A DNA stretch of 64,000 bases from an uncultured Oscillospiraceae bacterium. GTDB lineage: Bacteria > Bacillota > Clostridia > Oscillospirales > Oscillospiraceae. Below, piece after piece: positions 7,555 to 13,073 of this stretch (position 1 is its first letter; every line of letters starts with the position of its first letter). Made by a program: the position numbers and the translations under genes. The stretch spans positions 145,897-209,896 of the forward strand of contig CAKUHU010000002.1 in the NCBI GenBank assembly GCA_934659425.1. The letters run 5' to 3'. Under the pieces are notes generated by a model, which had not been told where the DNA came from, did not search any database, and saw nothing but the letters and a program-made list of their open reading frames with translations.

Positions 7555-7563
7555 TGGTATAAT
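7555..7563 (+). promoter_or_regulatory. Extended -10 promoter of the GTPase-nuclease gene
   Basis: TGG-TATAAT forms an extended -10 element. No good -35 hexamer is seen at 16-18 bases. It leaves a leader of about 60 bases. Confidence 0.5.
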
Positions 7564-7631
7564 ACTCTCAAAGCGCGGCCCTTGCGCCGCCCGACACCAG
7601 CGGGATAGGAAAGGGAAAGGAGGACTGCTCT

Positions 7632-10256
7632 ATGGACAAGCTTACTGTGGGGCTCTTGGCCCATGTGGACGCGGGAAAGACCACGCTGTCCGAGGCCCTG
7701 CTGTACCAGGGCGGCAGTCTCCGCCGGCTGGGGCGGGTGGATCACGCCGACGCCTTCCTGGACTCCGAGACACTGGAGCGGGAACGGGGCATCACCATTT
7801 TTTCCAAACAGGCGGTCCTGACCTGGGGAGATGTAGAGTGGACCCTTTTGGACACCCCAGGACATGTGGACTTTTCCGCGGAGACGGAACGGACGCTCCA
7901 GGTGTTGGACTGCGCCATTTTGGTGGTCTCCGGTCCGGACGGTCCCCAGGGGCACACCTTGACCCTCTGGAGACTTTTGGAGCGCCACAGAGTGCCCACT
8001 TTTCTCTTTCTCAATAAAATGGATCAGCCTGGGACAGACCAAGCCGGCCTGCTGCAAAAACTGAAAACAGTTCTCTCTGACAACATCCTGGATTTTTCCC
8101 ACTGCGATGGGGAGCCTTTTTGGGAGGAAGTCGCGCTGGGGGACGAGGGGGCGCTGGAGGAGTATATAGAGACGGGGCGTCTCTCGGACGGTACCCTTCG
8201 GGAAATGATAGGGATTCGGAAATGCTTCCCCTGCTTTTTTGGCTCTGCGTTGAAGGTAGAGGGGGTCCGTGCCCTACTGGACGGTTTGGCACGTTTTGCC
8301 CCGAGGCCCCACCGGGGAGAGGTGTTTGGGGCCAGGGTCTACAAAATATCCCGAGATCCCCAGGGGGCGCGGCTGACCCATTTAAAACTTACCGGCGGTA
8401 CGCTGAAGGTGAAAGCGGCGCCCCTTTCCCAGAGCGGAGAAAAGGTGGATCAGATCCGGATCTATTCCGGGGCCAAATTCACATTGACAGATGAGGCCGG
8501 GGCGGGTACAGTGTGTGCCGTCACCGGGCTGACCACTACCTATCCGGGTCAAGCTCTTGGAGCAGAGGGAGCTTGGGCCCCGCCCACCTTAGAGCCTGCC
8601 CTTGCCTACCAGCTCATTTTGTCTGCGGGGGCCGATCCCCACACCGTTTTTCCCAAGCTGAAGCTCCTGGCCGAGGAGGATCCGCAGCTTCATTTGGAGT
8701 GGAACGAGGCGCTGGGAGAGATCCATGTCCGGCTCATGGGGCAAGTCCAGGCGGAGGTGCTGAAGCGGCTGATTGCAGACCGTTTCGGGATAGAGGTGGA
8801 TTTTGGACCCGGGAATGTGGTCTACCGGGAGACCATCACCGCTGCTGTGGAGGGAGTGGGCCATTTTGAGCCGCTCCGCCACTATGCGGAGGTCCACCTG
8901 CTTCTGGAACCGCTCCCTCTGGGCAGCGGCCTTCAATTTGCCACAGCCTGCTCTGAGGACCAGTTGGACCGCAGCTGGCAGCGGTTGATCTTGACCCATC
9001 TGGCGGAAAAGCCCCATCGGGGGGTGCTCACGGGTTCAGCCATTACAGATATGAAGATCACTTTGATCGCGGGTCGGGCCCACGAGAAGCACACCGAGGG
9101 CGGTGATTTTCGCCAAGCCACCTATCGGGCGGTGCGGCAGGGCCTTATGAAGGCCCAGAGCGTCCTGCTGGAGCCTTGGTATGTCTTTCGGCTGGAGCTG
9201 CCCAGCGGTAGCCTGGGCCGGGCTTTGGCCGATCTTCAGCGTATGGGCGGAGAGATGGACGAGCCCCAGAGCGTGGGAGAGGAGACAGTCCTCACCGGCG
9301 GGGCCCCGGTATCTGCCCTCCGGGATTACAACAGGGAGGTGGCCGCCTATACCAGGGGACGGGGGCGGCTCACCTGTGCTCCGGGCGGCTACCGCCCCTG
9401 TGCCGATCAAGACGAGATCGTCTCTACCTTCGCTTACGACGCAGAGAGGGATGTGGATGACCCCGTGGGGTCCGTATTCTGTGCCCACGGCGCAGGGTAC
9501 AATGTGGCATGGGATCAGGTTGAGCGGCATATGCACCTGCCCGCTTGGGAGTTCCCCCCCTTCCCGCAGGAGGCTCCTCCGTCCTCTGCCCCTGTGCGCC
9601 CCGTCCCCCGGACGGGGAGTTTGGCGGAGGATAAGGAGCTGAGGTCCATCTTTGAGAGGACCTACGGGGCTATCAAGCCTCGGGCCTTTCAGCCGCCGCC
9701 CAAGGAGCATCGCCCTGCCTCAGGCGGGGGAAAGCGGACCGCTGCTCCAACTCTCGCCGGCCCGGAATATCTGCTGGTGGATGGCTATAACATCATTTTT
9801 GCGTGGGAGGATCTGAAAGCGGTGGCCCGGGAGAACCTGGATGCGGCCAGAAAGATCTTGATGGATGTCTTGAGCAATTATCAGGGCTTTCGTCAAAACC
9901 GGGTCATTTTGGTGTTTGATGCGTATAAAGTTCCCCAGGGTACCGGCTCGGTGACCCGGTATCACAATATCCATGTGGTATACACAAAAGAGGCGGAGAC
10001 GGCAGATGCGTATATAGAGAAGGTGAGCTACCGGCTTTCCCAGGAGAAATATCGAGTTCGGGTGGCCACCTCGGATGCCGCCGAGCAGTTCATTATTCTG
10101 GGCCATGGCGCGCTGCGCCTCTCCGCCCAGGATCTCCGAACGGAGGTGGAGCGCACCCAGGGAGAGATTGCCGCCATTCTCCGAAAGAACAATCTGAATC
10201 TGCCCCGGGAGCCCATGAGGGCCGCCTTTCAGCGGGCGGAGGAGGACAGCATATAA
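7632..10256 (+). CDS. Fusion of a TetM/EF-G-like ribosomal GTPase with a Rae1/YacP-type NYN endoribonuclease
   Basis: The 874-residue product has two parts in one frame. Residues 1 to about 640 match tetracycline ribosomal-protection factors and EF-G: G1 Ala-His-Val-Asp-Ala-Gly-Lys-Thr (10-17), Arg-Gly-Ile-Thr-Ile (52-56), Asp-Thr-Pro-Gly-His (74-78) and Asn-Lys-Met-Asp (128-131), then EF-G domains II to V. A Pro-rich linker of about 70 residues leads to residues 714-874, which match B. subtilis YacP/Rae1 closely (Leu-Leu-Val-Asp-Gly-Tyr-Asn; Val-Phe-Asp-Ala; Glu-Thr-Ala-Asp; Ala-Thr-Ser-Asp). Acidic residues Asp717, Asp763, Asp792 and Asp815 are kept. Rae1 is an A-site mRNA endonuclease. Coupled rescue or quality control on ribosomes is inference; tetracycline resistance is possible but unproven. 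Confidence 0.85.
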   Translation: MDKLTVGLLAHVDAGKTTLSEALLYQGGSLRRLGRVDHADAFLDSETLERERGITIFSKQAVLTWGDVEWTLLDTPGHVDFSAETERTLQVLDCAILVVSGPDGPQGHTLTLWRLLERHRVPTFLFLNKMDQPGTDQAGLLQKLKTVLSDNILDFSHCDGEPFWEEVALGDEGALEEYIETGRLSDGTLREMIGIRKCFPCFFGSALKVEGVRALLDGLARFAPRPHRGEVFGARVYKISRDPQGARLTHLKLTGGTLKVKAAPLSQSGEKVDQIRIYSGAKFTLTDEAGAGTVCAVTGLTTTYPGQALGAEGAWAPPTLEPALAYQLILSAGADPHTVFPKLKLLAEEDPQLHLEWNEALGEIHVRLMGQVQAEVLKRLIADRFGIEVDFGPGNVVYRETITAAVEGVGHFEPLRHYAEVHLLLEPLPLGSGLQFATACSEDQLDRSWQRLILTHLAEKPHRGVLTGSAITDMKITLIAGRAHEKHTEGGDFRQATYRAVRQGLMKAQSVLLEPWYVFRLELPSGSLGRALADLQRMGGEMDEPQSVGEETVLTGGAPVSALRDYNREVAAYTRGRGRLTCAPGGYRPCADQDEIVSTFAYDAERDVDDPVGSVFCAHGAGYNVAWDQVERHMHLPAWEFPPFPQEAPPSSAPVRPVPRTGSLAEDKELRSIFERTYGAIKPRAFQPPPKEHRPASGGGKRTAAPTLAGPEYLLVDGYNIIFAWEDLKAVARENLDAARKILMDVLSNYQGFRQNRVILVFDAYKVPQGTGSVTRYHNIHVVYTKEAETADAYIEKVSYRLSQEKYRVRVATSDAAEQFIILGHGALRLSAQDLRTEVERTQGEIAAILRKNNLNLPREPMRAAFQRAEEDSI

Positions 10257-10293
10257 AAAACCAAGGAGAGGCATTTGCCTCTCCTTGGTTTTT
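10257..10293 (+). terminator. Terminator after the GTPase-nuclease fusion gene
   Basis: Arms CCAAGGAGAGGCA and TGCCTCTCCTTGG with flanking A and T runs form a strong hairpin that begins directly at the stop codon. Confidence 0.9.
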
Positions 10294-10682: not shown

Positions 10683-13073
10683 TCACTGCTTAATGATGAT
10701 GGTGGCAACAAAGGTAGCACCGTCATAGCTGCCGTAGGCCTCTATGATGTCCCCGGCGGCAAATCCGCTGGAGAGGTTCAGCGAGGAGCCGGACAAGTTC
10801 ATGAGGGAGGCGTTTTTCACATTCACGACCACCAGAGAAGTTTTTCCCAAGGAGTTGGTGACCTGTACCGTCATGGTCTTGGCGCTGCTTGTAGAGGAGG
10901 TCAGGAGCACCGTGCCAGTGAGCCGGGTGGAGGAGGAGGCGGTGGCGGTGATGTCGATGGACACCACTTCACTGCCGCTGGTCACCAGGGCCACAGTGTA
11001 GCCGGGTTTCAGATTATAGATGTTGGAAGAGACCCCGGCCTGGGTTACAGATACGCCGTCGGAGATGTTATAGGAGATGTCCGTGCCGTCGGAGAGGGTC
11101 ACATCGATCACGACCCCGGAGTTCTCCAATGTGACGCGGTTGATGGTGCCGGTCAGATTGGCGGTCTGGGGAGTGGATTCGATTTTTTCCACTTCATTGT
11201 AGCGGACGGTGAGGGTGACGCTGTCACCGGTGCGAAGCTGGTCTATGGAGCTTGTCTTGCCGTTGCGGACAATGGTGGGGAGATCGGTGATGTCCAGGTT
11301 GTAGGATACTACGCTGTCGTCGTTCAAGGTGATTTGAAGGACGGCCAGCAGGTTGGAGGTGTCATAGGTGATGGAGGTCAAGGTCCCCTCCACGGAGACA
11401 GAGCCGGGATAGGCGTCGATCTGGACGATCATATTGCCTGAGACCACCACAGTGACATACCAGCCGGATTCGATCTGAGCGAGGGTCTTGACTTCGCCGT
11501 TATAGGTGATGGCCGCGCTCTGGCTGACGGTATAGGAGACCTCCTTGCCGGTGAAGGTGTCGGTAATATAAACGCTCCGGGCAGTACCTACAGTGCCCAG
11601 ACGCTTGATGGGGCCCTGAATATAGCTGCTGACCGTATCTACTGCGATGGAAGCGGCCTGGTTGGTATCGGTAGCCACACGGATCTGAGCGTATTTTCCC
11701 ACCTGTGCGGTGGACAGGGAGCCCAGCGCGCCATTGACGGTGACGGCGATGCCGCTGGGGACGGTGTAGTGATATACCACGCCATTGAAGGCGGTGAGTC
11801 CCAAGGTGGTGACATTTCCGGTGGTGCTGACGCTTTCGATCAGGCCCTCCATCATCTGGGTGCCGCCGGAGAACCGGACCCCGGCCAAATGCTCCATCTC
11901 ATCCACGTAGCAGATGGCGGAGGTATATCCGGCATCTTCATCGATGAGATTCCGGTTCCCCACATTTTTGCCCACGGCCACCTGGGTAAAGCGGTCAATG
12001 GTATAATTGCGGACCTGGCCGTTTATCCGCAGGGAGAGCTGGCCATCCTGCAGCTGGGAGACTGAGCCGGAATAGGTGGTGAGGATACCGCTCAAACGGG
12101 CCGACTGCACTGCACCACGGGAGGTCAGGTTCAGCCGGACATATTTGCCGACCTCCAAAGCGGAGGAGGAGTCGAGCATATTGTCCTTATAGATCTCTGC
12201 GGTGGCGGGAAGGGAAAAGGCTTGGGAGGTGCCGGAGAGCTCACTGGACAAGGTCAGGATGATGCTTCCGTCGGCCGCCTTGGTGATGGCGGTGATGGTG
12301 CCCGCCTGCCAGTCATAGGAGGTGTATTCACTCAGCTCTGTCTCGATGCCGGCATCCTCCATGAAGTTCAGTGCCCGGCACAGCATGGTAGTCATTTCCG
12401 CGCGGGTCACAGCCCCCTGGGGGTCAAAGTTGCCGGTCTCTTTCCCCTTGACGATGCCGTAATTGGTGAGGATGTAAACATAGGGCTGAAGGGAGGGGGA
12501 AATATCGCTCTTGTCCAGATAGCTCAGAGGATAGGAGGACAGGCTCTTGGACAACGGCTCCAGCTGCATGGCCCGGACCAGATACATGCAGATGTTTTCC
12601 CGGGTCATGGTCTCCTCCAAATAGGTCTTAGGGACATTGCCCGGATCGGAGGTGTCCACGGATGCGGGATCGATCTGGGAGAGGGCCTCCAGCTCTGCCA
12701 GGGAAAGGACCCCGCTCTCGACAGCCACCGCCATCTCTGCGGCGGCCCAGATATTGATGCTGCTAGTGGAGGGAAGGATCTGGGTCATCTCCTTCTTCCG
12801 GTCGGCGGCGATTTTGGCTTGGGTGGAGGAGTCGATGCCGGTGGCTCTGGCACAAAACAGCAGCGTCTCGGCGGCGGTCATTTTGCCGTTGGGCTTAAAG
12901 GAGCCGTCCTCATAGCCCTTGGCATAGCCCAAATTGGCCATTTTTGTGATGTCCTCGTACCCCCAAAAGTTGCTGGGGACGTCGGTAAACTGGACGGCGT
13001 GGGCGGGCACGGCCCACAGCGAGAGGGTGAGCGCCAGCGTCATGGTCAGCGCGCCGAGCCGTTTCAATTTCAT
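10683..13073 (-). CDS. Large secreted S-layer-homology (SLH) protein with beta-repeat region
   Basis: The 796-residue product has a Sec signal peptide (Lys-Leu-Lys-Arg, hydrophobic stretch, Ala-His-Ala cut near residue 26), then three SLH modules over about residues 27-240: Phe-Thr-Asp-Val-Pro-Ser-Asn-Phe-Trp-Gly-Tyr; Pro-Leu-Ser-Tyr-Leu-Asp-Lys-Ser; and Gly-Asn-Phe-Asp-Pro-Gln-Gly-Ala-Val-Thr-Arg-Ala-Glu-Met. SLH modules bind pyruvylated wall polymers. The remaining 550 residues are Ser/Thr/Val-rich and fall into about seven repeats of 70-80 residues, each with a Gly-Thr-(Ile/Val)-x2-(Ile/Val) start and a Tyr-x-Ile/Val strand. This is probably a surface-layer or adhesive beta structure. GGAGGG precedes the ATG. 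It is transcribed alone from a good promoter. Confidence 0.85.
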   Translation of the reverse strand: MKLKRLGALTMTLALTLSLWAVPAHAVQFTDVPSNFWGYEDITKMANLGYAKGYEDGSFKPNGKMTAAETLLFCARATGIDSSTQAKIAADRKKEMTQILPSTSSINIWAAAEMAVAVESGVLSLAELEALSQIDPASVDTSDPGNVPKTYLEETMTRENICMYLVRAMQLEPLSKSLSSYPLSYLDKSDISPSLQPYVYILTNYGIVKGKETGNFDPQGAVTRAEMTTMLCRALNFMEDAGIETELSEYTSYDWQAGTITAITKAADGSIILTLSSELSGTSQAFSLPATAEIYKDNMLDSSSALEVGKYVRLNLTSRGAVQSARLSGILTTYSGSVSQLQDGQLSLRINGQVRNYTIDRFTQVAVGKNVGNRNLIDEDAGYTSAICYVDEMEHLAGVRFSGGTQMMEGLIESVSTTGNVTTLGLTAFNGVVYHYTVPSGIAVTVNGALGSLSTAQVGKYAQIRVATDTNQAASIAVDTVSSYIQGPIKRLGTVGTARSVYITDTFTGKEVSYTVSQSAAITYNGEVKTLAQIESGWYVTVVVSGNMIVQIDAYPGSVSVEGTLTSITYDTSNLLAVLQITLNDDSVVSYNLDITDLPTIVRNGKTSSIDQLRTGDSVTLTVRYNEVEKIESTPQTANLTGTINRVTLENSGVVIDVTLSDGTDISYNISDGVSVTQAGVSSNIYNLKPGYTVALVTSGSEVVSIDITATASSSTRLTGTVLLTSSTSSAKTMTVQVTNSLGKTSLVVVNVKNASLMNLSGSSLNLSSGFAAGDIIEAYGSYDGATFVATIIIKQ

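What the first reader, a model, noticed from the sequence alone, without database searches (positions are those of the whole stretch)
7632..10256. Natural fusion of a ribosomal-protection-type GTPase with an A-site mRNA nuclease
Seen: one uninterrupted 874-codon frame with complete EF-G/TetM G motifs in the first 640 residues and a full YacP/Rae1 NYN domain (Asp717, Asp763, Asp792, Asp815) at the end, joined by a Pro-rich linker. Known: TetM-type factors enter the A-site region of the ribosome, and B. subtilis Rae1 cuts mRNA in the A site in a translation-dependent way. Inference: the GTPase delivers or licenses the nuclease, so the protein may detect stalled ribosomes, cut the mRNA and help clear the ribosome. 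It could be a stand-alone stress or drug-response system. The gene has its own promoter and terminator.
Basis: partly seen in the sequence, partly recalled or inferred. Interest (0 to 1): 0.85.

Follow-up and report, generated by a model that had tools for sequence, protein, structure and literature searches.

The report
Translation GTPase fused to Rae1-like RNase
Many gut Clostridia carry one protein that joins a GTPase of the ribosome-binding kind to an enzyme related to one that cuts messenger RNA on ribosomes, and it seems to have taken the place of the separate enzyme found in their cousins; the fusion was noted in print in 2015, and what it does is not known from the papers found here.

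Summary
Window 7632-10256 is one intact 874-codon gene: EF-G/Tet-like GTPase, structured tail, disordered linker, full YacP/Rae1 NYN domain with all four acidic residues. It is no artefact: 41 of 44 related loci show the fusion. Nor is it a discovery: Atkinson 2015 (PMC4342817) reported it in ten Clostridiales and guessed at drug resistance. New here: (i) of 196 Clostridia genomes, 70 have the fusion, 58 a stand-alone YacP, none both; a draw of 393 gave one with both; (ii) the GTPase family is a group apart from TetM/TetO and EF-G, with its own invariant domain-IV tip loops, so tetracycline removal is unlikely; (iii) stand-alone YacPs mostly end in an LEKxRR-like motif that 49 of 49 fused domains lack; (iv) the gene has a promoter-like box shared with relatives, short leaders and no conserved neighbour. 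Best reading: it is these cells' Rae1, brought to ribosomes by a built-in translational GTPase. Against tight coupling: unfused GTPases occur in 10 of 196 genomes, five without any YacP, and 53 of 58 YacP genomes lack such a GTPase. No activity has been shown. New member of a known, uncharacterised family.

The parts
7555..7563 (+). putative extended -10 promoter element TGGTATAAT
   Evidence: read; like element upstream of the gene in 6 of 9 close relatives (counted by eye); not reported by the consensus scan
7616..7623 (+). putative ribosome binding site AAAGGAGG
   Evidence: sequence
7632..10256 (+). fusion gene, 874 codons, translational GTPase plus NYN_YacP RNase
7632..9410 (+). EF-G/Tet-like GTPase core, residues 1-593 (G domain, II, III, IV, V)
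8850..8894 (+). domain IV tip loop I, EGVGHFEPLRHYAEV (residues 407-421)
   Evidence: 11 of 15 positions identical in 22 of 22 fusions, the other four in 18 to 21; differs from TetO and EF-G
9081..9137 (+). domain IV tip loop III and what follows, HEKHTEGGDFRQATYRAVR (residues 484-502)
   Evidence: KHT[ED]GGD in 45 of 45 (44 loci, one of them unfused, and the window); TetO has SPVSTPADF at this place, EF-G HEVDSSEMAF
9411..9551 (+). family tail, residues 594-640, with SVFCAHGAGYNVAW signature
   Evidence: structured in the model; shared by unfused members
9552..9764 (+). flexible linker, residues 641-711, Pro-rich, with a conserved short helix EL..IFERT (669-677)
   Evidence: pLDDT under 50 on both sides of the helix; a loosened pattern matches 42 of 42 fusions, a stricter one 31 of 42
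9771..10199 (+). NYN_YacP (Rae1) RNase domain, residues 714-856; Asp717, 763, 792, 815
10256..10293 (+). intrinsic terminator, 17-pair stem, T-rich tail

Best explanation
It is the Rae1 (ribosome-associated endoribonuclease) of this bacterium, built onto its own translational GTPase. The EF-G-shaped part binds the factor site of a paused ribosome with GTP and uses family-specific domain-IV tips to probe the decoding centre. The tethered NYN domain, on a flexible linker of about 70 residues, then cuts the mRNA at or near the A site, most simply after GTP hydrolysis and withdrawal of domain IV. Shown: gene, domains, intact active sites, wide presence in Clostridia, exclusion of stand-alone yacP, own group and tip loops. 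Inferred: ribosome binding, pause recognition, order of events, cleavage.
For: Fusion and stand-alone YacP exclude each other: 70, 58 and 0 both in 196 genomes (Fisher p 1.7e-14, which ignores kinship); one genome with both full-length forms, G300, in the draw of 393. All four acidic residues conserved in 49 of 49 fused and 29 of 29 stand-alone domains. Stand-alone yacP sits between rlmB-like and sigH-like genes in 7 of 7 genomes looked at; in one fusion genome (G013) these two are neighbours with no yacP between. The LEKxRR-like C-terminal motif is found in 25 of 29 stand-alone and 0 of 49 fused domains (2 cut-off fused ones left out). Rae1 R166P, in that motif, was one of the suppressors of the efp swarming defect that the authors class with loss of function (PMC6613710, passages), so the GTPase may have taken over what that arm does. 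EF-G-like fold. Fusion genomes G001 and G008 also hold rows that group as EF-G.
Against: No biochemical data. Exclusion may reflect one or few ancestral relocations inherited by descent. Unfused GTPases of the same family occur with no YacP in 5 genomes (G041, G044, G070, G084, G441), so the GTPase does something without the nuclease. 53 of 58 genomes with stand-alone YacP have no such GTPase at the sensitivity, so YacP works without it. 68 of 196 genomes have no NYN_YacP match, so the function is dispensable. In G122 and G162 the unfused GTPase and yacP lie far apart on one contig. In 11 of 12 fusion genomes no rlmB-like gene lies beside the best sigH match, so the loss of yacP from its old place is seen in one genome only.
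Confidence: 0.5

Rival explanations
1. A tetracycline-type ribosomal protection protein with an added RNase, as proposed in 2015: the GTPase ejects a drug and the RNase adds to resistance.
For: Closest solved structures by single-sequence search are TetO and TetM, though a family profile scores T. thermophilus EF-G almost the same as TetO, 393.5 against 397.3 bits; PMC4342817 proposes it; the public record names the Agathobacter rectalis member a TetM/TetW/TetO/TetS family protein.
Against: NCBIfam tet_protect scores 407.6 bits against a cut-off of 775; none of 15 genomes searched, four of them with the fusion, passes it. Loop III is another sequence than in TetO and is invariant. The family is split from TetM/TetO by a branch of support 99. 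No leader regulator found and short 5' regions in most relatives looked at. No conserved neighbour.
Confidence: 0.1
2. A ribosome biogenesis or rRNA/tRNA maturation factor: the GTPase binds an assembly intermediate and the NYN domain trims RNA.
For: The domain has been proposed to act in rRNA and tRNA maturation (cited in PMC4342817); stand-alone yacP lies beside an rlmB-like gene and one that I take from memory for mrnC; EF-G relatives LepA and BipA are linked to assembly (titles and abstracts listed).
Against: The one studied YacP, Rae1, depends on translation to destabilise mRNA and is listed among nucleases that cut mRNA in the A site (PMC10100781, PMC12320835, passages). Domain-IV tips are among the most invariant stretches.
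Confidence: 0.2
3. The two halves work separately: the fusion only keeps both near ribosomes, and GTP hydrolysis has no part in cleavage.
For: Unfused GTPases live with and without YacP and far from it; long disordered linker.
Against: No unfused row falls inside the fusion group in a tree with 20 fused and 12 unfused rows; short linker helix kept in 42 of 42 by a loosened pattern; stand-alone C-terminal motif missing in 49 of 49 fused domains.
Confidence: 0.18
4. Sequencing or assembly artefact joining two genes.
For: None found.
Against: Same fusion in 41 of 44 loci and in 70 of 196 genomes; one locus (L004) is from a record titled complete genome.
Confidence: 0.01

Closest known systems
Clostridial Tet proteins with a YacP-like NYN domain (Atkinson 2015, PMC4342817; passages read)
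   Same: Same architecture, same order of bacteria; very probably the same family
   Different: The passage reads it as possible antibiotic resistance; Rae1 was described later (2017, as cited); the passages seen say nothing of yacP replacement, family tip loops or an unfused sister group
Rae1/YacP of Bacillus subtilis (5mq8, 5mq9)
   Same: NYN_YacP domain, four acidic residues, many core positions
   Different: Stand-alone; has the C-terminal FEKLRR form of the motif that fused domains lack; no GTPase
TetM/TetO ribosomal protection proteins
   Same: EF-G-like GTPase, best single-sequence PDB match
   Different: Different domain-IV loops; far below the curated cut-off; NYN domain and own tail. 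A family profile finds EF-G about as close
EF-G and EF-G-like factors
   Same: Fold, G motifs
   Different: EF-G rows are split off with full support (the tree was rooted on them, so it does not say whether Tet or EF-G is nearer); genomes with the fusion also hold EF-G
Unfused members of the same family, about 650-670 residues in most (L041, L101-L111)
   Same: Same tail signature and tip loops
   Different: No NYN domain; outside the fusion group in the tree

Membership tests
Rae1/YacP endoribonuclease | NYN_YacP domain above the curated cut-off | tested here: met
   165 bits against 24.6
Rae1/YacP endoribonuclease | conserved acidic residues | tested here: met
   D7, D53, D81, D104 equivalents in 49 of 49 fused, the window among them
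Rae1/YacP endoribonuclease | C-terminal LEKxRR-like motif holding Arg166 of Rae1 | tested here: not met
   25 of 29 stand-alone, 0 of 49 fused; the profile match ends at 144 of 166 here
Rae1/YacP endoribonuclease | place between rlmB and sigH | tested here: not met
   stand-alone 7 of 7; window neighbours are other genes
Rae1/YacP endoribonuclease | translation-dependent mRNA cleavage on the ribosome | not testable with these tools
   needs bench work
Tetracycline ribosomal protection proteins | curated NCBIfam score | tested here: not met
   407.6 against 775 bits
Tetracycline ribosomal protection proteins | domain-IV loop sequence of TetM/TetO | tested here: not met
   KHTEGGD in place of the SPVSTPAD stretch
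Tetracycline ribosomal protection proteins | drug displacement | not testable with these tools
   needs bench work
EF2-family translational GTPases | G1-G5 motifs and domains III-V in EF-G order | tested here: met
   GTP_EFTU, EFG_IV and EFG_C in 55 of 55 family rows, EFG_III in 51
EF2-family translational GTPases | ribosome-stimulated GTPase activity | not testable with these tools
   needs bench work

The most novel reading that the evidence does not exclude
A one-protein ribosome rescue machine: a translational GTPase whose own tip loops recognise a paused ribosome gates an A-site mRNA nuclease, making GTP-controlled mRNA cleavage the usual Rae1 pathway of a large share of gut Clostridia.
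Probability: 0.3. Interest if true: 0.85.

Novelty: new member of a known kind. Interest (0 to 1): 0.5.

Why it matters
How Rae1 reaches and selects its ribosomes is, as far as I know, still open. A natural fusion that stands in for the separate enzyme points to a partner activity that can be tested. It also warns that a fusion named as a tetracycline resistance protein in a public record may be a housekeeping factor; such names could inflate resistome counts.

Tried and rejected
The own-genome search failed because no genome is held for the window, so absence of a separate yacP could not be tested in the window's own genome. A strict linker pattern matched 31 of 42 fusions; the looser one, written after seeing the misses, matched 42 of 42. 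An early NYN extraction with too narrow a pattern caught 10 domains and was redone with 80. Neighbourhood comparison found no conserved partner gene: the gene upstream that I take from memory for pnp is shared with 3 of 44 loci. The 5' leader folds worse than its shuffles and no Rfam family reached its gathering score there. A phage-labelled record with the fusion (L171) also holds an ORF that starts like bacterial prolyl-tRNA synthetase (recognised from memory, no family search), so I take it for bacterial DNA; a second such record, MT835514.1, was not looked at. The NYN tree has few columns; it neither shows nor rejects a single origin (p-AU 0.57). The sigH test was weak: in 1 of 12 fusion genomes an rlmB-like gene lies beside the best match, all 12 best matches are under the family's cut-off and several may not be sigH. 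Of the 29 stand-alone domains, 26 came from the best-scoring loci, which may favour complete C-termini; the motif was sought in the last 25 residues of stand-alone and the last 40 of fused domains. The tail search used 17 fused rows and one unfused row, so distant unfused members may be missed. Not held: Leroy 2017, Condon 2018, Deves 2023, Gilet 2025; Condon 2018 is on the distribution of Rae1 and may mention the fusion.

Full report
OBSERVATION. The frame at 7632-10256 is open for 874 codons and holds, in order, GTP_EFTU, EFG_III, EFG_IV, EFG_C and NYN_YacP. EF-G domain 2 is seen at 20.7 bits, under its cut-off. By single-sequence search the best solved relatives are TetO (E 3e-73), TetM and EF-G for the first part and the YacP chains 5mq8/5mq9 for the last. 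With a family profile TetO (397.3 bits) and T. thermophilus EF-G (393.5) are about equal. AlphaFold2 gives mean pLDDT 83.7 and pTM 0.64: confident GTPase, tail to about 640 and most of the NYN domain; 644-666, 681-708, 818-821 and 857-859 are under 50. Foldseek ranks EF-G structures first. I draw no position of NYN relative to the GTPase from the model.

NOT AN ARTEFACT. The protein search scored 7980 relatives; the 120 rows listed, the query included, carry PF05991 beside the GTPase domains. The genome scan returned 44 loci: 41 have both tail and NYN in one frame, two are cut by contig ends (L019, L040) and one, L041, is unfused. The records are named Oscillospiraceae, Acutalibacter, Pseudoflavonifractor, Lachnospiraceae, Clostridiaceae and similar.

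PRIOR ART. [quoted passage not shown] Searches of the open library showed no later study of it among the titles and abstracts listed (two searches listed 20 of 73 and 20 of 47). The library lacks most subscription journals and four Rae1 papers that I asked for. Two of the listed relatives bear the name 'translation factor GTPase family protein'.

REPLACEMENT OF STAND-ALONE YACP. In 16 of 16 genomes chosen because they hold the fusion, the one PF05991 match lies in a frame of 850 or more residues, the fusion. In an even draw of 196 genomes of the class, joined with a search for the 53-residue tail signature, the tally is: fusion in 70 (one genome, G432, has two), stand-alone YacP in 58, both in 0, no NYN_YacP match in 68. 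Fisher's p of 1.7e-14 ignores kinship and should be read as description. In the larger draw, which overlaps the first, 250 of 393 genomes have a match and five have more than one. Of these five, only G300 has a full fusion and a full stand-alone gene; in the other four the extra matches are short, one of them (G386) just over the cut-off at 26.5 bits. Stand-alone yacP lies between rlmB-like and sigH-like genes in 7 of 7 genomes looked at (G300, G122, G179, G076, G144, G162, G409; rlmB named by motif or by eye, sigH in four by TIGR02859 over its cut-off). In fusion genome G013 an rlmB-like gene and the sigH match (under cut-off) are adjacent with no yacP; in the other 11 fusion genomes searched no rlmB-like gene was seen in the stretch around the best match.

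UNFUSED SISTERS. Ten of 196 genomes have GTPases with the same tail but no NYN, 11 genes in all: five genomes with stand-alone YacP and five with none. L041's genome also has a stand-alone YacP. In a tree of 47 rows the fusions form one group (20 rows, support 100) that no unfused row enters; the whole family (32 rows, 99) is split from TetM/TetO and from 12 EF-G rows (quick tree, SH-aLRT only, rooted on EF-G; L041 and L121 are long branches). This cuts both ways: it fits a single fusion event, and it shows that the GTPase has a role without the nuclease.

DOMAIN IV TIPS. Loop III reads AHxKHTEGGDFRxA, with KHT[ED]GGD in 45 of 45 sequences tested. TetO has YYSPVSTPADFR and EF-G YHEVDSSEMAFK at this place. 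Loop I is VGHFEPLRHYAEV, also unlike both. According to PMC4342817 these loops contact peptidyl-tRNA in EF-G and dislodge the drug in Tet proteins. Ten positions of loop I and eleven of loop III and its flank are invariant in 55 rows, nine of them unfused. I infer a constant ribosomal target that is neither EF-G's nor TetM's.

THE NYN DOMAIN. Rae1's D7, D53, D81 and D104 are kept in 49 of 49 fused and 29 of 29 stand-alone domains. The C-terminal LEKxRR-like motif is present in 25 of 29 stand-alone and 0 of 49 fused; the column of Arg165 is Arg in 29 of 29 stand-alone and in 4 of 49 fused (where the alignment of fused ends is loose). Rae1 R166P was among the class II suppressors that the authors class with loss of function (PMC6613710, passages). 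So fused domains lack an element that matters in Rae1. That the GTPase replaces it is my inference. The linker keeps a short helix of pattern E[LIV]xx[IL][FLMI]x[RKQMN][TA] in 42 of 42 (loosened after a stricter one matched 31 of 42): a candidate docking motif.

REGULATION AND CONTEXT. A TG-extended -10 box lies upstream in the window and in 6 of 9 close relatives; two have weaker forms and one none (my count by eye). Where it is present in relatives the leader is short, with little room for a TetM-type attenuator (that comparison is from memory). In the window the leader is about 65 bases; with the first codons it folds worse than its shuffles. A strong terminator follows. No neighbour is conserved. 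Two of 72,556 plasmid records carry a fusion, both large and typed non-mobilizable: one is named a tetracycline resistance protein and lies near a toxin-antitoxin pair, the other has a recombinase gene about 1 kb away.

MECHANISM. [quoted passage not shown] An EF-G-like body would put domain IV into that same site, so both can hardly sit there together (inference). The flexible linker allows a sequence: GTPase binds, probes and hydrolyses GTP; domain IV leaves; NYN enters and cuts. NYN could instead cut outside the A site. Binding, order and cleavage are all unproven.

VERDICT. Real, widespread in Clostridia, reported in print in 2015, and with no functional study found in these searches. The exclusion of stand-alone Rae1 and the distinct tips make a Rae1-type ribosome factor likelier than a drug resistance protein.

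Noticed in passing
L172:4120-6921 (NZ_CP143948.1, Agathobacter rectalis): A fusion gene is named TetM/TetW/TetO/TetS tetracycline resistance protein in the record, next to genes named BrnT toxin and CopG antitoxin.
   Followed up: partly
plasmid hits H4-H15 (Clostridioides difficile): Twelve plasmid records of about 97 to 150 kb carry a stand-alone NYN domain gene with 42.8% identity to the window's domain.
   Followed up: no
L171 (MT835563.1): A record deposited as bacteriophage holds a fusion gene and an ORF that looks like bacterial prolyl-tRNA synthetase (from memory); probably bacterial DNA.
   Followed up: partly
G432 (L120, L136): One small genome holds two different fusion genes.
   Followed up: no
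L121 (G409:C37): A Tet-like GTPase with the best tet_protect score of the 15 genomes, 478.6 bits, still under cut-off; long branch beside TetM/TetO.
   Followed up: no
window 10683-13073 (-): 796-residue protein that starts with what look like S-layer homology repeats, downstream and convergent; named from the sequence, no family search made.
   Followed up: no
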